64,000 nucleotides of DNA from Candidatus Pyrohabitans jungbluthii (GTDB taxonomy: Archaea; Hydrothermarchaeota; Hydrothermarchaeia; Hydrothermarchaeales; BMS3B), in the NCBI GenBank assembly GCA_002010065.2, contig MTMD02000006.1, positions 1 to 64,000 on the forward strand. Direction: 5' to 3'. The position numbers and the translations under genes were made by a program. The notes beneath the pieces were generated by a model that saw only the letters and a program-made list of their open reading frames with translations, was not told the origin of the DNA and made no database searches. Below, piece by piece: positions 3,177-64,000 of this stretch; position 1 is the first letter of the stretch; the number at the start of each line of letters is the position of its first letter.

Positions 3177-3680
3177 ATGGGAAAGACAGAAGAAAATCTT
3201 GCAAAAGCGTTCGCGGGCGAGAGCCAGGCAAACCGCCGCTACCTCGCCTTTGCGAAGAAGGCAGAGGAAGACGGCTACCCCAACGTAGCCAGGCTTTTCA
3301 GGGCCGCCGCAGAAAGCGAGACCATACATGCTCTGAACCACCTCAAGGTCATGGGCGGCGTTAAATCCACTGTAGAAAACCTCAAGGCTGCCTATGAGGG
3401 TGAGACCTACGAGAAGACTGAGATGTACCCTGAGTTCATAAACACAGCCAAAGAAGAGGGCAACGCTGAGGCGGAGAGAACATTCACCTGGGCGATCAAG
3501 GCGGAGGAGGTTCACGCAGAGCTTTACACCAAGGCAATGGAGGCTGTGAAGGCAGGCAAAGATGCGGAGCTTGGTTCGCTTCAGGTTTGTCAGGGTTGTG
3601 GCTATACTGTTGAAGGAGATGCTCCTGAGCGGTGCCCGGTTTGCGGTGCCCCCAAAGAGAGGTTCAAGGAGGTAGCTTAG
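3177..3680 (+). CDS. rbr: Rubrerythrin (copy 1)
   Basis: 167 aa. Non-haem diiron peroxidase that reduces hydrogen peroxide in anaerobes. The N-terminal four-helix ferritin-like domain carries FAGESQANRRY (about 12-22) and an ESETIH iron-ligand helix. A second EGN...EE pair lies around 105-120. The C-terminal rubredoxin domain has CQGCGYTV and CPVCGAPK. A GGGAGGT ribosome site precedes the ATG. It is paralogous to the gene at 3960, which has the same length. Confidence 0.95.
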   Translation: MGKTEENLAKAFAGESQANRRYLAFAKKAEEDGYPNVARLFRAAAESETIHALNHLKVMGGVKSTVENLKAAYEGETYEKTEMYPEFINTAKEEGNAEAERTFTWAIKAEEVHAELYTKAMEAVKAGKDAELGSLQVCQGCGYTVEGDAPERCPVCGAPKERFKEVA

Positions 3681-3854
3681 GTGTGCGACCCCAGCAAGGG
3701 TCCCACCCTCCACATTTTAATCTGCGCTCAGTGTGGTACTGAGAACGAAGCCTTCAGCGATGAGGCGAGAATAAACTGCGAAAGCTGCGGCGTGGAGATA
3801 AGCAACCCCTACTACCATGTGCACACCCCTGTAAAGTGTGAAGCAGAAAACTGA
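3681..3854 (+). CDS. Small cysteine-rich zinc-ribbon protein
   Basis: 57 aa from a GTG directly abutting the rubrerythrin stop codon, suggesting translational coupling. It contains CAQCGTENEAF and INCESCGVEI, two CxxC knuckles about 20 residues apart, plus two isolated cysteines. The family is not recognised. Its position between two rubrerythrins suggests a metal or redox accessory role. The ORF is short, but the paired cysteine motif and tight spacing support it. Confidence 0.6.
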   Translation: MCDPSKGPTLHILICAQCGTENEAFSDEARINCESCGVEISNPYYHVHTPVKCEAEN

Positions 3855-3959
3855 TTTAGTATTTTTTAATTTTTACAATGAAATGCTCCGTTCGGAGTGT
3901 AGCAACAGAAAATTATTAATCAGTGGATAAGCAATTAGTTTAATTTGGGAGGTGTTGAG

Positions 3960-47464: not shown

Positions 47465-47923
47465 ATGGAGGATAAATTTAATTATACGGCATTTTTTGGT
47501 GGAGTTACATTCGTTCTTGCGCTTTATTTTATAGGGGAGTATATAAGCAATTCAATTGCACCAGTGAACCTTAGTCAATCAAATGCAATTTTGTGGGTGT
47601 CTATATTTATAGGATTATCAATGGGTCACTATATAGGGAAAGCTATAACAAAAGGAGGAGGAACACTGAATTCATTTCTTGTAGGTATTTTTGTAACATT
47701 AACTTTATTCACTATTGCATTTGTAACAGGTGTATCGAATCTCACAGGTGTTATGATTTTCCTCACTATTTCTGTGTTCTTAATGCATTATTCAGACTTG
47801 CTAGAAAAACATGAAAATGTAGAAATATTAATTGATATTTTCGCTCAAAAAATTTCGGGAGTGGTTTTAGTTATCTTCGCCATAATTAAATATCTCATAC
47901 CTGTTCTCCAAAAAATTATTTAG
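47465..47923 (+). CDS. Four-helix membrane protein, AT-rich cargo
   Basis: 152 aa, four predicted transmembrane helices (about 10-30, 43-60, 68-105, 130-150). Clear GGGGTGATG ribosome site. Markedly AT-rich against the surrounding viral genes. Located just before the terminase block. Candidate holin, superinfection-exclusion or lysogenic-conversion protein; nothing diagnostic. Confidence 0.6.
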   Translation: MEDKFNYTAFFGGVTFVLALYFIGEYISNSIAPVNLSQSNAILWVSIFIGLSMGHYIGKAITKGGGTLNSFLVGIFVTLTLFTIAFVTGVSNLTGVMIFLTISVFLMHYSDLLEKHENVEILIDIFAQKISGVVLVIFAIIKYLIPVLQKII

Positions 47924-48301: not shown

Positions 48302-48318
48302 CTGACTTTCCTTTTTAA
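48302..48318 (+). promoter_or_regulatory. Late promoter element 1 (terminase)
   Basis: CTGACTTTCCTTTTTAA, 26 nt before the small-terminase ATG. The distance suits an archaeal TATA/BRE promoter giving a leaderless mRNA. One of five near-identical copies in the structural cluster. Confidence 0.75.
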
Positions 48319-53086: not shown

Positions 53087-53479
53087 ATGGATATTAACAT
53101 AAAGGATTTGACTTCTCGTAATTTGGTCAATCATTTTGTAATTGGCTATTTCGCTCTTTATGTAATCCTTGGCGATCAGTTTATTAATTATAAATTATTG
53201 AAGCAGATAGTCTTGGCGATTGTTGCAAGCTACTTGTTGTTTATTCCCGCAAGATTAATCGTCCGCATTCGTTGGGGAAGATGGGAAGAAAATCAAGAGG
53301 CGTACACGTACTATCACTTTAGAATATTCGCGGTTCTTCTCTCTCTTACTATAATCAAATTTATTGATATCATGAGAGGACTATGGCCGTGGTACAAACT
53401 GATTTTAGTTTGGTTGTTATCTTTTACAGCAGACTGGTTAACATGGTGGCTTTACAGAAAAGATACCACCGACTGCTAA
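53087..53479 (+). CDS. Membrane protein, AT-rich cargo
   Basis: 130 aa with three to four hydrophobic helices (about 20-35, 43-62, 80-95, 100-122) and tryptophan-rich loops. GGGGGTAG ribosome site. AT-rich like the end of the MuF gene; it lies between that pair and late promoter element 3. Could be part of the toxin/immunity or exclusion module. Confidence 0.55.
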   Translation: MDINIKDLTSRNLVNHFVIGYFALYVILGDQFINYKLLKQIVLAIVASYLLFIPARLIVRIRWGRWEENQEAYTYYHFRIFAVLLSLTIIKFIDIMRGLWPWYKLILVWLLSFTADWLTWWLYRKDTTDC

Positions 53480-53495
53480 ATTCTACAACCACTAT

Positions 53496-53512
53496 CTGAC
53501 TTTCCTTTTTAA
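53496..53512 (+). promoter_or_regulatory. Late promoter element 3 (protease/capsid)
   Basis: CTGACTTTCCTTTTTAA, 25 nt before the prohead protease ATG, again consistent with a leaderless transcript. It restarts transcription after the AT-rich cargo. Confidence 0.75.
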
Positions 53513-60314: not shown

Positions 60315-60626
60315 ATGGCAAAGAAGGGCATTGATTATTCTAAGATATATGTGGCAGACGATCCTATAACAATCGAAGTGAACGGAGTGGAATTCAAGCT
60401 AAAGGAACTGAGTTCCGGAGAGTACTATGATATCCTTGAATCCTGCAGCCGTGGAAGTGATTTTGACAGGAAAAAGTACAGCCATAAGCTCGTCCAAGCT
60501 GCTGTGATAGAGCCAGATATTAACGCAGCAAAATTAAAACCTGGTGTGTTAGCAGTATTGGTCAACGAAGTCGAAAATTCTCTGGGTCTCTCTGAGGAGG
60601 CATTGCGTCACATTAAAAAAAAGTAG
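60315..60626 (+). CDS. Tail assembly chaperone, short form
   Basis: 103 aa. ITIEVNGVEFKLKELSSGEYYDIL with a helical end, located between tail tube and tape measure, where lambda G-like chaperones lie. It ends in ATT AAA AAA AAG TAG. The run of eight As (60615-60622) contains the classical slippery heptamer A AAA AAG directly before the stop. Confidence 0.8.
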   Translation: MAKKGIDYSKIYVADDPITIEVNGVEFKLKELSSGEYYDILESCSRGSDFDRKKYSHKLVQAAVIEPDINAAKLKPGVLAVLVNEVENSLGLSEEALRHIKKK

Positions 60627-60805
60627 AATCTAAGTTTCATCTTTACTTTTTAGCTGAACAATTCGGCGACTTAGAATTGGAAAGGGTCAATAAGCTGCCC
60701 ATTCACCGTGTTTTAGAGTGGCTTGAATATTTCAAGCAGAAGCATGAAAAAGTTAAGGCAATTACTATTGATAGCTCAGAGGGACACACGTTCAGGTTTT
60801 CTTAG
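60623..60805 (+). CDS. Frameshift extension of the tail assembly chaperone (long form 60315-60805)
   Basis: After a -1 shift at 60617-60623 reading continues with VESKFHLYFLAEQFGDLELE ... to TAG 60803-60805, adding 60 residues (total 163 aa). The extension has no start codon of its own and keeps a helical, viral-coding pattern, like the GT product of lambda. Short and long chaperones control tail length with the tape measure. Confidence 0.78.
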   Translation, partial: VESKFHLYFLAEQFGDLELERVNKLPIHRVLEWLEYFKQKHEKVKAITIDSSEGHTFRFS

Positions 60806-61348
60806 CTATTCATTATTGTAAAATTGTGCTATTTTTTGTAAATGATATTCTGAAGGTTGTTTACATTCTGATTTGTCTTTCCAATTTTGAGAAATTTCAC
60901 GCCTACACACATCTTCCAAAATCAATTGAATTGCCTCGAATGCTGTCATACCTTCAGACATTATTATACGATCATCTTTCTTTAGGGTCCCATATTCCCC
61001 TCCTCTAGGTTCCCACTTGTAGGGTATGGTAGCCCCATTACCACACACTAAAACCATTGAAATACTTTCAAACATTTTTTCAGGTATATATTTTCTTGAT
61101 CGAGGCGATCTCCCCACTGGATGGAAGACTATTTCGAGTTTCGTATTGGTAAAAAATTTATTGACTATTTTATTTGATTCATAATCAAAAAACTCAAAGT
61201 TCTCAAGTACTATCTTTTTCTCGTCGTAAAAAAAACCTCTAATGGATAAATTCATATAGACTTCTTTCCATCGTGTTTCAATTTCGTTCCTTAATTTTTC
61301 AACTATCTTATCAATCTCTTTAATAACAAAACTTAAGTGTCTACTCAT
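60806..61348 (-). CDS. Hypothetical cargo protein
   Basis: 180 aa, AT-rich, opposite strand; its stop directly abuts the chaperone frameshift stop. N-terminal helices, central beta-rich part IRGFFYDEKKIVLENFEFFDY, C-terminal helix AFEAIQLILEDVCRRE. No motif recognised. Overlaps the upstream gene by 8 nt, so both are one unit. Candidate lysogenic-conversion or defence gene. Confidence 0.6.
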   Translation of the reverse strand: MSRHLSFVIKEIDKIVEKLRNEIETRWKEVYMNLSIRGFFYDEKKIVLENFEFFDYESNKIVNKFFTNTKLEIVFHPVGRSPRSRKYIPEKMFESISMVLVCGNGATIPYKWEPRGGEYGTLKKDDRIIMSEGMTAFEAIQLILEDVCRREISQNWKDKSECKQPSEYHLQKIAQFYNNE

Positions 61349-62096
61349 TAAACCTCCCCAATTCTACAGAATAGAAATATTCTACTAGTAACCCTGGACT
61401 CACATTTCTGTTTCTTCTCCAACTTGTAATAATTTTATTCTTAAGTCTATCTGTATTTGTTGAGGTAATCCTGGTTGGGGAGATAGGTAGATACCAACCA
61501 TTATTTATAGCAGTTTCTATAACTTTAGGAGCCTCCTCATAAAGCCAATCTATTGTTTTTATTACATAGTTTTTATCTCTTCTATGAATAAAGAACCTAT
61601 ATATCTTCTCCATAGCAAATACCCAATCAAAAATTTCGTCATATAATCCAGCAATTATTATCGACTTAAGTGTTGGGATTTTAGGCTTTATTTCTAATTC
61701 TGGAAAGAATCTTATAATGGAATCATCAATATATAATAAATGGGCAAATTTTATAACATACTCAAATCCATAAATATGAGCATAATCTTTGAATAAGTTT
61801 TCGTAATGCAATTTTGTAATATGGTCATACATGTTGTATTTAGATCCCATGGTCTTAACTGTGATCTCAATGTAATCAGAATATTTTATAATAAAAGGTT
61901 CCATCTCTTTTAACATTTTGTCTACTTTGTTTAAAGTCTCTTCTTCGAATATTTCAAGTTCATTGTATTTAAAGAATGGCAGTGCTTTCCATTCTCTAAT
62001 AAATTCCTCTTTACTGGGTCTGCCAAAAGATGGTCCAGAAGGGTGATACACACCAATTTTTGGATGATAAACAGAAACAACATTAACGGACGCCAT
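61341..62096 (-). CDS. Hypothetical cargo protein
   Basis: 251 aa, AT-rich. GGAGG ribosome site upstream of ATG 62096. Helical with many aromatic residues (EWKALPFFKYNELEIFEEE; FDWVFAMEKIYRFFIHRRD). No enzymatic motif. First gene of a two-gene opposite-strand unit between tail genes; repeats lie in its promoter region. Confidence 0.6.
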   Translation of the reverse strand: MASVNVVSVYHPKIGVYHPSGPSFGRPSKEEFIREWKALPFFKYNELEIFEEETLNKVDKMLKEMEPFIIKYSDYIEITVKTMGSKYNMYDHITKLHYENLFKDYAHIYGFEYVIKFAHLLYIDDSIIRFFPELEIKPKIPTLKSIIIAGLYDEIFDWVFAMEKIYRFFIHRRDKNYVIKTIDWLYEEAPKVIETAINNGWYLPISPTRITSTNTDRLKNKIITSWRRNRNVSPGLLVEYFYSVELGRFNE

Positions 62097-62343
62097 GTAT
62101 TAGCCTCCAACCTTACATCATTAATTACCTCACCTTTTTGCGCCCACCCAACTATATCATATACCTATATCTCTATCATCTATCATAACTTATACCCATA
62201 TCACCGTATATGTTTATTGTATATTGTATATACCTATACTTTCGTATAGTTACACCAACTCTTTGATATATAAAATTTATTGTTCGGTTGTCTGCAAAGC
62301 CTTGGCAATCACGTTGATGTTGCAGTCCTGGGCATCGGGGTTA
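62097..62343. promoter_or_regulatory. AT-rich promoter region with TATACCYATA repeats and a gene remnant
   Basis: TATACCTATA at 62160-62169 and 62229-62238, TATACCCATA at 62191-62200, and a perfect inverted repeat CTATAC/GTATAG at 62234-62249. The part at about 62283-62340 is GC-richer. On the minus strand it reads PDAQDCNINVIAKALQTTEQ then a stop, like the end of a truncated gene. Upstream of the 251-aa cargo gene. Confidence 0.45.
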
Positions 62344-62955
62344 TTACTGATATGCTTTATCCACATCTTCCTCTAGCTCTTTCAGTCTCTTTTTTAATCT
62401 CTCATATTCCTCCTTATCAATACTCCTAGCTTTTTTTAATTCTTGTATTTCTTGATATATCTCATCCAATTTCGCCTCAATATTCGCCAACCTGTCTGTG
62501 CGATAACTTGTATAATAAATTGGTAGTTTCTCATATTGTAGCTGTAATTTTTCTATTTTGGGTAAGACTTTGCTTAAATTCTGATGGACTTCTGCGAATT
62601 GCTGAGCGATTTTCAAAGTTTTTAGAACAGGAATTTGAAGCTCTCTATATAGAGATATTGTTTTAGAGATTGACGAAATAGCTGCCATAGTATTCGCCAA
62701 ACTTTTTTCTAATCTATCAAGCTCAGGGTATTTTTCATGATATTCACTCAAAATTTGTTTTGCTTTTTCTTTTATTGAAATGTCATCTGATTTTGAGAGT
62801 TCCTTTGCTATGAAGTAAGCTTCAATCGGGAGTGTATCTAAATGTCGCTTTATCAAGTCTAAGCATTCCAAATGTGTATCCTCATCTTTTGCTTTCTCCT
62901 TGATTTCTTCCATAATTTTTTGAGCATCTTTTGAAGAGACCAACTTTTCTGACAT
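62344..62955 (-). CDS. Coiled-coil cargo protein
   Basis: 203 aa from ATG 62955 (GTG 62967 overlaps the upstream gene's stop). Almost wholly helical; C-terminal coiled coil from about 130 (RLANIEAKLDEIYQEIQEL ... EEYERLKKRLKELEED). AT-rich. Coupled to the 75-aa membrane protein; perhaps a membrane-associated sensor or exclusion system. Confidence 0.6.
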   Translation of the reverse strand: MSEKLVSSKDAQKIMEEIKEKAKDEDTHLECLDLIKRHLDTLPIEAYFIAKELSKSDDISIKEKAKQILSEYHEKYPELDRLEKSLANTMAAISSISKTISLYRELQIPVLKTLKIAQQFAEVHQNLSKVLPKIEKLQLQYEKLPIYYTSYRTDRLANIEAKLDEIYQEIQELKKARSIDKEEYERLKKRLKELEEDVDKAYQ

Positions 62956-62960
62956 ATTTT

Positions 62961-63188
62961 TCACCACACTTTAAGTATAAGAGCCACAGTTAGAATGATT
63001 ATAAAAACTACACTTCCCGCAATCCCTGAACTTTTGCTAATTTTAAATAAACCCGCAAAATATACTCCAATTAATCCGTATGCCACCGCCCACAGTATTA
63101 GAGTATTTGATGTAAGTGCATCCACTATTGTGATTATTACCAACCATAGCAGAATAAAACCAACTGTGTATCCAGTAGCTACCCCCAT
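62961..63188 (-). CDS. Three-helix membrane cargo protein
   Basis: 75 aa with hydrophobic helices about 5-25, 30-48 and 53-73. First gene of the second pair on the minus strand. AT-rich. No family recognised. Transcription would start from the shared AT-rich stretch near 63190-63210. Confidence 0.55.
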   Translation of the reverse strand: MGVATGYTVGFILLWLVIITIVDALTSNTLILWAVAYGLIGVYFAGLFKISKSSGIAGSVVFIIILTVALILKVW

Positions 63189-63195
63189 GACTTTA

Positions 63196-63206
63196 TTTTA
63201 TAAATA
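63196..63206 (+). promoter_or_regulatory. TATA box for the tape measure gene
   Basis: TTTTATAAATA ends 21 nt before ATG 63228, the distance expected for a leaderless archaeal transcript. Unlike other late genes, the CTGACTTT element is absent here. Confidence 0.55.
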
Positions 63207-63227
63207 GGGCCTATAAAAAAGTTTTCT

Positions 63228-64000
63228 ATGCCTTCAGTAAGAGACCTCTTTCTTAGGATCGGACTTCATGACACCGCATCTGGGAAGATGTTGAAAATAA
63301 TGAAAAGTTCTGATGCAGTGCATAAACAATTCCAGAAAGTGGGTAGTAGCGCGGAAAAATTAGGCAAGCAAATGGGGAGTGTAGCTAAATTCTTTAGAGA
63401 AATGGATACAATTGAAAAAGACATTATTAGAGTATCTCAGCAACATAATAGGGCAGTCAAAAAGCTTGCCCAAGCTTATATAAATCTAAAATGGAAAGTT
63501 AAACAGTATAAAAGGGAGGTATTAGCACCAGAACTTAGAAAGGTAGGGCGGTTTGCAAGGGAACATGCGCAACAACTAAAAGCAATGGGAGTTGCAGCTA
63601 CCGCTACTATGAGTGGGCTACTCTGGAAGGCACAAACGTACGAGAAATCTTTAGCAACTCTGCGGGCGCTCACTGCTGATAATGCAGAAGAGTATGAATA
63701 TTATCTATCTTTGATTGAAAAAAATAAGGGAGGGCTTTTTTCGAAGTCTGATATCGCAGCAACTCTCGCCTATGCTAAGGCCAACCGTCTCACCAGAGAA
63801 GAACTTGAGACCCTTCTTCCCTATGCAAAATCTGCTGCAGCAATGTTTGGTGAGGACTTACAACTTGCCTTCATTGCCATGGTAAGGGCGATGAAATATG
63901 GAGAGGCGGAACTTGCAGAGAGAATCGGATTACAGCTAAGAGAGAACGCAGTCAACCACATCGCCCTTAAACTCTATGGCAAAAGGCTGTCACAACTTAA
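63228..64000 (+). CDS. Tape measure protein, N-terminal part (runs off the right edge)
   Basis: 257 codons visible. Helical N-terminus with KMLKIMKSSDAVHKQFQKV, a coiled part (VSQQHNRAVKKLAQAY) and the TMP core domain WKAQTYEKSLATLRALTADNAEEY ... LPYAKSAAAMFGEDLQLAF, matching the conserved region of phage tape measure proteins. Determines tail length. Cut by the window end. Confidence 0.8.
   Translation, partial: MPSVRDLFLRIGLHDTASGKMLKIMKSSDAVHKQFQKVGSSAEKLGKQMGSVAKFFREMDTIEKDIIRVSQQHNRAVKKLAQAYINLKWKVKQYKREVLAPELRKVGRFAREHAQQLKAMGVAATATMSGLLWKAQTYEKSLATLRALTADNAEEYEYYLSLIEKNKGGLFSKSDIAATLAYAKANRLTREELETLLPYAKSAAAMFGEDLQLAFIAMVRAMKYGEAELAERIGLQLRENAVNHIALKLYGKRLSQL

What the first reader, a model, noticed from the sequence alone, without database searches (positions are those of the whole stretch)
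60806..63188. Four-gene AT-rich cargo block on the opposite strand inside the tail module
Between the tail-assembly chaperone and the tape measure, genes that normally abut, sit two divergently inserted pairs: 61341/60806 (8-nt overlap) and 62961/62344 (membrane plus coiled coil). They are antisense to the structural genes and low in GC. This is the pattern of morons expressed in the lysogen, such as anti-virus defence or exclusion. None has a recognised domain, so this may be an undescribed system.
Basis: partly seen in the sequence, partly recalled or inferred. Interest (0 to 1): 0.78.

Follow-up and report, generated by a model that had tools for sequence, protein, structure and literature searches.

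The report
Antisense moron block beside tape-measure gene
An integrated archaeal tailed virus carries four foreign-looking genes on the opposite strand, between the tail-chaperone and tail-length genes, and related viruses use the same spot for different membrane-protein genes, so it looks like a recurrent docking site for genes that probably help the resident virus keep rival viruses out.

Summary
Four minus-strand genes (60806-63188; 33% GC against 51% for the provirus) fill the joint between the tail assembly chaperone and the tape measure protein (TMP) of an archaeal tailed provirus. They form two codirectional pairs: m4-m3 (membrane protein plus coiled coil) and m2-m1.

Relatives settle the context. 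Six have no insert at this joint. Eight fully visible ones carry other antisense genes, mostly membrane-anchored or lipoprotein and mostly unrelated to each other. Bacterial relatives have none.

The virus has its own late-promoter element (TGACTTYNNTTTWTA). It occurs 8 times in 79 kb, always in front of structural genes, TMP included. The block genes lack it and use host-type BRE/TATA sites; the m4 site interlocks with the TMP late promoter. So the block is a moron locus outside the late regulon, probably expressed in the lysogen.

HK97 gp15, a membrane superinfection-exclusion protein, sits at the same joint; m4-m3 most likely works like it. m2-m1 is a two-gene cassette also found on Halomontanus plasmids, in one next to type I-B CRISPR-Cas. 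m3 recurs in two relatives at other joints. No known domain was found.

Site, turnover and promoter class rest on sequence. Exclusion is inferred and untested.

The parts
60315..60626 (+). tail assembly chaperone (TAC), left flank of the insertion
   Evidence: Phage_TAC_5 E 6e-5, PHROG XkdN-like E 2e-5
60615..60805 (+). TAC-T extension reached by a likely -1 frameshift on AAAAAAAA; its stop 60803-60805 is the exact left edge of the block
   Evidence: frame read; PHROG 'tail assembly chaperone' weak E 0.007; L103 homologue E 6e-6
60806..61348 (-). m1, 180 aa, second gene of the m2-m1 pair; Shine-Dalgarno GGAGGT; overlaps m2 by 8 nt
   Evidence: plasmid homologue WP_317176166 (global alignment z 4.9, 0 of 1000 shuffles)
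61341..62096 (-). m2, 251 aa, first gene of the m2-m1 pair; helix-rich by a low-confidence model
   Evidence: plasmid homologue WP_317176165 25% over 178 aa
62234..62249 (.). perfect inverted repeat CTATAC-TTTC-GTATAG at the predicted m2-m1 transcription start; possible operator (suggestive only)
62266..62281 (-). best BRE/TATA site of the block (12.4 bits), candidate promoter of m2-m1
62277..62366 (-). remnant C-terminus of a small Cys-rich cargo protein (..DAQDCNINVIAKAL..), intact in L012, L101, L100: scar of earlier cargo
   Evidence: E 0.003-0.007 in a six-frame search of the 79-kb contig
62344..62958 (-). m3, about 204 aa helical/coiled-coil protein, second gene of m4-m3; family with strictly conserved ..KEEYE.LK..LKELEE..DKAYQ C-terminus
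   Evidence: homologues in L099 (35%, E 4e-42) and L105 (E 2e-19) at other joints
62961..63188 (-). m4, 75 aa, membrane protein with at least two hydrophobic helices, first gene of m4-m3, apparently leaderless
63188..63202 (+). virus-specific late-promoter element TGACTTTATTTTATA for TMP; its first base lies in the m4 start codon
63211..63226 (-). host-type BRE/TATA promoter GAAAACTTTTTTATAG, 10.7 bits, 38 nt before m4; interlocked with the TMP promoter
63228..64000 (+). tape measure protein, right flank (continues to 64976 in L002)
   Evidence: best relative L102 45% over 380 aa
58744..58758 (+). late-promoter element of the sheath-tube-TAC unit (others at 48303, 50082, 53497, 58157; outside the window 64997 and 66969)

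Best explanation
The block is a moron locus: accessory genes parked at a recurrent insertion site, the TAC|TMP joint, of an archaeal temperate tailed virus and expressed from the provirus, not with the virion genes. It holds two transcription units. m4-m3 starts from a host-type promoter interlocked with the TMP late promoter and makes a small membrane protein plus a coiled-coil partner. It most likely works like HK97 gp15: m4 sits in the membrane where the tape measure of an incoming related virus helps the genome in, and blocks that step, with m3 assisting from inside. m2-m1 is a separate mobile two-gene cassette shared with haloarchaeal plasmids, probably a conflict or maintenance module (abortive infection or toxin-antitoxin-like). 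Shown by sequence: site, turnover, absence of late promoters, membrane nature of m4, and the family links of m2, m1 and m3. Inferred: expression in the lysogen (about 0.85), exclusion at entry by m4-m3 (about 0.45), and the role of m2-m1 (about 0.35 for conflict or maintenance).
For: Empty joints with TAC-T and TMP abutting: L102, L105, L109, L120, L122, L127. Filled joints with other antisense genes: L012, L014, L015, L017, L099, L101, L103, L104, and L100 in part. Of the nine fully visible filled joints, the window included, eight have an antisense gene with a membrane segment or lipobox and the ninth a Gly-zipper; background is 25 of 221 sense genes, and 0 of 7 other cargo genes examined have one. 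The late element TGACTTYNNTTTWTA occurs 8 times in C6, all + strand in the structural module including TMP, none in 256 kb of other host contigs. Relatives use TTTTAAAGTC, 33 of 33 on the + strand, mostly about 29 nt before start codons where a gene start was called; in L012, L014, L015 and L099 it lies before TMP, 7-8 nt from the start codon of the antisense gene. Host-type BRE/TATA at m4, 10.7 bits at -38, between the 75th and 90th percentile of host intergenic promoters. HK97 gp15 sits between gp13/14 and gp16 and excludes at DNA injection, with tube/TMP hybrids escaping (PMC10883804); Ltp of TP-J34 acts on TMP (PMC3952083). TAC and TMP have intermediate GC3 (0.44, 0.42) and different closest relatives from their neighbours, so this segment recombines.
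Against: No expression or phenotype data. m4 shows no significant similarity to any known exclusion protein or to the other joint membrane genes. HK97 gp15 is in sense orientation; here the genes are antisense. The m4 promoter score is helped by local AT-richness (about 1% chance for a given 70 bp). The strongest m2-m1 promoter lies 185 nt upstream of m2, which needs a long leader. Structure models of m1 and m2 are of low confidence (pLDDT 50 and 39).
Confidence: 0.55

Rival explanations
1. The genes are lysogenic-conversion factors that change the host envelope or physiology for reasons unrelated to other viruses; the position next to TMP only marks a tolerant recombination joint.
For: Morons elsewhere include such genes; cargo is diverse (multi-TM, SH3, lipoprotein, Cys-rich); other joints of the tail module also take cargo (sheath|tube in L012, tube|TAC in L015, L099 and L101, after TMP in L109 and L105).
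Against: Membrane anchoring is concentrated at the TAC|TMP joint (8 of 9) and absent from the other cargo examined (0 of 7); HK97 has an exclusion protein at the same joint; L101 carries a Fic protein matching PADLOC SoFic/PDC-S04 at the next joint.
Confidence: 0.25
2. The main content is a toxin-antitoxin or abortive-infection pair (m2-m1) that stabilises the provirus or kills infected cells; m4-m3 is secondary.
For: Two overlapping genes of conserved order and size on an archaeal provirus and on Halomontanus plasmids, in one beside type I-B CRISPR-Cas and a restriction endonuclease gene, in both beside orc1/cdc6.
Against: No toxin or antitoxin domain in Pfam, NCBIfam or PADLOC; proteins larger than most TA components; the CRISPR neighbour is present in only one of the two plasmids.
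Confidence: 0.12
3. The genes are late tail or assembly factors transcribed from the opposite strand.
For: They lie inside the tail module; m3 has weak coiled-coil matches to TMP profiles (E 8e-4).
Against: No late element in front of them; absent or replaced in relatives with the same tail genes; GC and codon usage differ; the coil matches hit many unrelated coiled coils.
Confidence: 0.04
4. Decaying insertion or selfish element without a present function.
For: AT-rich; a truncated Cys-rich remnant at 62277-62366 shows decay of earlier cargo.
Against: All four ORFs are intact, with ribosome-binding sites or a leaderless promoter; no transposase or endonuclease domain.
Confidence: 0.04

Closest known systems
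HK97 gp15 moron (superinfection exclusion), Escherichia phage HK97
   Same: Extra gene between the frameshifted tail assembly chaperone pair and the tape measure gene; small membrane protein that blocks DNA injection of related phages (PMC10883804 citing Cumby et al. 2012).
   Different: HK97 gp15 is one sense-strand gene with a terminator; here four antisense genes in two units in an archaeal virus. No sequence similarity was reported by any search here.
Ltp-type exclusion lipoproteins (S. thermophilus phage TP-J34)
   Same: Membrane-anchored exported prophage protein aimed at the tape measure of the incoming phage (PMC3952083); L014 and L105 carry lipoproteins at or near the same joint.
   Different: ltp sits in the lysogeny module; m4 is an integral membrane protein without lipobox.
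SNIPE membrane-bound nuclease
   Same: Membrane defence acting during genome injection and associating with tape measure proteins (PMC13190303).
   Different: m4-m3 has no nuclease or DUF4041 domain match.
WP_317176165/WP_317176166 gene pair on Halomontanus rarus plasmids
   Same: Homologous two-gene cassette, same order and sizes, overlapping ends.
   Different: Function unknown; plasmid-borne beside orc1/cdc6 and, in one plasmid, type I-B CRISPR-Cas.

Membership tests
Moron (accessory prophage gene, independently transcribed) | present in some relatives and absent or replaced in others at one joint | tested here: met
   six empty joints, nine fully visible filled joints including the window, plus L100 in part
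Moron (accessory prophage gene, independently transcribed) | base composition unlike the phage | tested here: met
   GC 0.328 against 0.509; GC3 0.27-0.29
Moron (accessory prophage gene, independently transcribed) | own promoter, outside the late operon | tested here: met
   no late element; host-type BRE/TATA; by sequence only
Moron (accessory prophage gene, independently transcribed) | expressed in the lysogen | not testable with these tools
   no transcript data
HK97 gp15-type superinfection exclusion | sequence homology to gp15 | tested here: inconclusive
   m4 has no significant hit in Pfam or PHROGs and none in PADLOC or NCBIfam at a credible level; no direct m4-gp15 alignment was run
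HK97 gp15-type superinfection exclusion | small membrane protein at the TAC|TMP joint | tested here: met
HK97 gp15-type superinfection exclusion | blocks DNA injection of related viruses | not testable with these tools
   needs infection assays
Known defence systems in PADLOC | profile match | tested here: not met
   only weak coiled-coil matches of m3 and a 12-bit match of m1 to Old
m2-m1 plasmid/provirus cassette | homologous m2 with an overlapping m1 homologue downstream | tested here: met
   the m1 link is weak alone (z 4.9) but supported by synteny

The most novel reading that the evidence does not exclude
The TAC|TMP joint of this lineage of archaeal tailed viruses is a dedicated docking site where unrelated membrane-anchored exclusion genes have been installed repeatedly, each antisense and promoter-interlocked with the tape measure gene. 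It would be a convergent archaeal counterpart of HK97 gp15. m4-m3 would be a two-part membrane exclusion system, and m2-m1 a new two-gene conflict family shared with haloarchaeal plasmids.
Probability: 0.4. Interest if true: 0.85.

Novelty: new variant of a known kind. Interest (0 to 1): 0.7.

Why it matters
Little is known about how archaeal proviruses shut out rival tailed viruses; the paper searches made here found no description of this site. If right, a single gene joint becomes a systematic place to find archaeal exclusion proteins, and the shared position in HK97 and these archaeal viruses would point to a general link between the tape measure gene and exclusion genes in both domains. 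The virus-specific late-promoter elements also allow late genes and cargo to be told apart by sequence alone.

Tried and rejected
Family searches of m1-m4 in Pfam, PHROGs, PADLOC, NCBIfam: no credible match; the many m3 hits are coiled-coil background. AlphaFold without alignment: m1 pLDDT 50, m2 pLDDT 39; Foldseek of m1 in the PDB gave no match below E 0.2, so no fold is claimed. m1-like hit L195 in IMG/VR is a short-chain dehydrogenase, a chance match. Searches of the 23 genomes of the host's phylum with the sheath, m1, m2 and m3, and with m1 and m2 profiles, found only the window's own genome, apart from a fragmentary E 0.02 match of the m2 profile in G011 with four internal stops, taken as chance. 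The two IMG/VR copies (3300027323, 3300004069) match the contig at 100% over every stretch held, so they give no selection signal. PDB sequence search with m1, m2 and family profiles: nothing credible. Rfam: no match. The host could not be named; it has DsrA closest in the PDB to 3mm5. Considered and set aside: homing-endonuclease or IS insertion (no such domain), and chance ORFs (excluded by length, composition and homologues).

Full report
Context. The window is part of a 79,132-base contig of an archaeal genome. From about 37.8 kb to 75.0 kb it holds a tailed provirus ending in an integrase (L002:13765-14973). Terminase, portal, head, sheath (PHROG E 6e-37), tube and XkdN-like chaperone lead into the block, and the tape measure (TMP) and baseplate genes follow. 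The host carries DsrA whose best solved relative is 3mm5; its phylum is small in the held set and none of its other genomes has the virus. Two IMG/VR contigs carry the same virus at 100% identity over all stretches held.

The block itself. m1 (60806-61348), m2 (61341-62096), m3 (62344-62958 or 62967) and m4 (62961-63188) all lie on the minus strand. They fill the gap between the stop of the -1 frameshift product of the tail assembly chaperone (TAC), 60803-60805, and the TMP start at 63228. GC is 0.328 against 0.509; GC3 is 0.27-0.29 against 0.59-0.76 for most structural genes, while TAC (0.44) and TMP (0.42) are intermediate. m4 has at least two hydrophobic helices. m1 and m2 have Shine-Dalgarno sites; m4 looks leaderless. 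The pairs are codirectional, not divergent from each other.

Relatives show turnover at exactly this joint. A baseplate-J alignment found related tail modules. In L102, L105, L109, L120, L122 and L127 TAC-T and TMP abut. Filled joints carry other minus-strand genes: a 306-aa multi-TM protein plus a 50-aa Cys-rich protein in L012, a 116-aa SH3-like lipoprotein in L014, a 146-aa TM protein in L015, a 112-aa Gly-zipper protein in L017, a 91-aa tail-anchored protein in L099, an 85-aa Cys-rich and a 145-aa TM+SH3 protein in L101, a 97-aa TM protein in L103, a 48-aa TM protein in L104, and a Cys-rich gene start in L100. The SH3 proteins of L014 and L101 are homologous (E 3e-15), as are the Cys-rich proteins of L012 and L101 (E 1e-11); the other membrane genes show no significant similarity. 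The bacterial relatives examined have no such insert. The window keeps a truncated C-terminus of the Cys-rich family at 62277-62366 (E 0.003-0.007), a scar of earlier cargo.

Membrane bias. Of nine fully visible filled joints (window included), eight carry an antisense gene with a membrane segment or lipobox, against 25 of 221 sense genes and 0 of 7 other cargo genes examined. A binomial estimate by hand gives about 2e-7, somewhat weaker once the L014/L101 pair is counted once. L105 has an antisense lipoprotein just before TAC and L109 an antisense TM gene just after TMP.

Families. m3 has homologues in L099 (35%, E 4e-42; between tube and TAC, + strand) and L105 (E 2e-19; upstream of TAC, + strand), with a nearly invariant C-terminus. 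So m3 moves between joints and strands, and in all three viruses it lies near an antisense membrane or lipoprotein gene. m2 has homologues on two Halomontanus rarus plasmids (tblastn E 5e-6 over 7.3 Gb; 25% over 178 aa), each followed with a 4-nt overlap by a 194-aa gene whose global alignment to m1 has z 4.9 (0 of 1000 shuffles). In one plasmid the pair follows a type I-B CRISPR-Cas cluster, in both it abuts orc1/cdc6. None of these families has a Pfam, NCBIfam or PADLOC match (NCBIfam was run on m1-m4 only).

Promoters. A motif learned de novo from host intergenic regions is the archaeal BRE/TATA (nAAAnnTTTATATnnn, most often 35-38 nt before start codons); m4 has a 10.7-bit site at -38 (63211-63226), between the 75th and 90th percentile of host promoters. 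The best site of the block (12.4 bits) is at 62266-62281, upstream of m2, with an inverted repeat at the predicted start. The structural module carries a different, virus-specific element, TGACTTYNNTTTWTA: 8 copies in the contig, all on the + strand, 30-66 nt before terminase small subunit, portal, protease, 58187, sheath, TMP, LysM-position and 67010 genes, none in 256 kb of other contigs of the same genome. Relatives have TTTTAAAGTC(T) in the same role, 33 of 33 on the + strand. In four of them it precedes TMP 7-8 nt from the start codon of the antisense gene; before TMP in the empty-joint viruses L102, L105 and L109 it is absent. In the window the TMP element begins at the m4 start codon, and the m4 TATA lies between the TMP element and the TMP start. 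The two promoters are thus interlocked, which suggests that late TMP transcription and lysogenic m4 transcription exclude each other (inference).

Mechanism. HK97 has its exclusion moron gp15 between the frameshifted chaperone pair and TMP. gp15 is reported to block DNA injection, and hybrids with other tube/tape measure genes escape (PMC10883804); Ltp of TP-J34 targets TMP (PMC3952083); SNIPE acts at injection and contacts TMPs (PMC13190303). By position, membrane nature and promoter class, m4-m3 most likely acts at the same step. This is an analogy of place and topology, not a shown homology. m2-m1 is most likely a conflict or maintenance module; the evidence is only its spread on mobile replicons.

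Limits. Host and virus names are unknown, several relatives are metagenome contigs of unknown host, 'archaeal-type' is a judgement from gene similarity, gene calls in relatives come from a simple ORF procedure, and no expression or phenotype data exist. The literature search was limited to open-access papers; it found archaeal head-tailed proviruses including Archaeoglobi hosts (PMC11705971) but no description of this site.

Noticed in passing
48303, 50082, 53497, 58157, 58744, 63188 (+); outside the window 64997, 66969 of the contig: Virus-specific late-promoter element TGACTTYNNTTTWTA, only on the + strand in the structural module and absent from 256 kb of other host contigs; relatives use TTTTAAAGTCT. 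A ready handle on an archaeal viral late regulon.
   Followed up: yes
60609-60805 (+): Likely -1 programmed frameshift (AAAAAAAAG) in the archaeal tail assembly chaperone gene, giving a TAC-T extension that ends at the block.
   Followed up: partly
47465-47923 (+) and 53087-53479 (+): Two further AT-rich genes (GC 0.31 and 0.36) rich in hydrophobic segments inside the provirus, the second followed directly by a late-promoter restart at 53497: more moron candidates.
   Followed up: no
L101:1564-2589 (+): Fic-domain protein (PADLOC PDC-S04 E 2e-34, SoFic E 6e-34) between tube and TAC of a relative: defence-type cargo at the neighbouring joint.
   Followed up: partly
L105:4070-5017 (-): ClpP-like SDH-type serine protease (Pfam E 1e-22) antisense between TMP and the next tail gene of a relative.
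   Followed up: no
L015:2463-3068 (-) and 3196-3946 (+): Unmatched 201-aa antisense protein, a TrmB-like regulator (weak) and a DUF3467-like protein (weak) inserted between tube and TAC of a relative.
   Followed up: no
L100:1-9455: Closest relative downstream of TMP (up to 88% identity) but its TMP is only 23% identical: a recombination breakpoint beside TMP.
   Followed up: partly
L002:12897-13208 (-): Another antisense gene with a membrane segment near the right end of the provirus, with a BRE/TATA-like site upstream (GAAAGGTTTTTAAAG).
   Followed up: no
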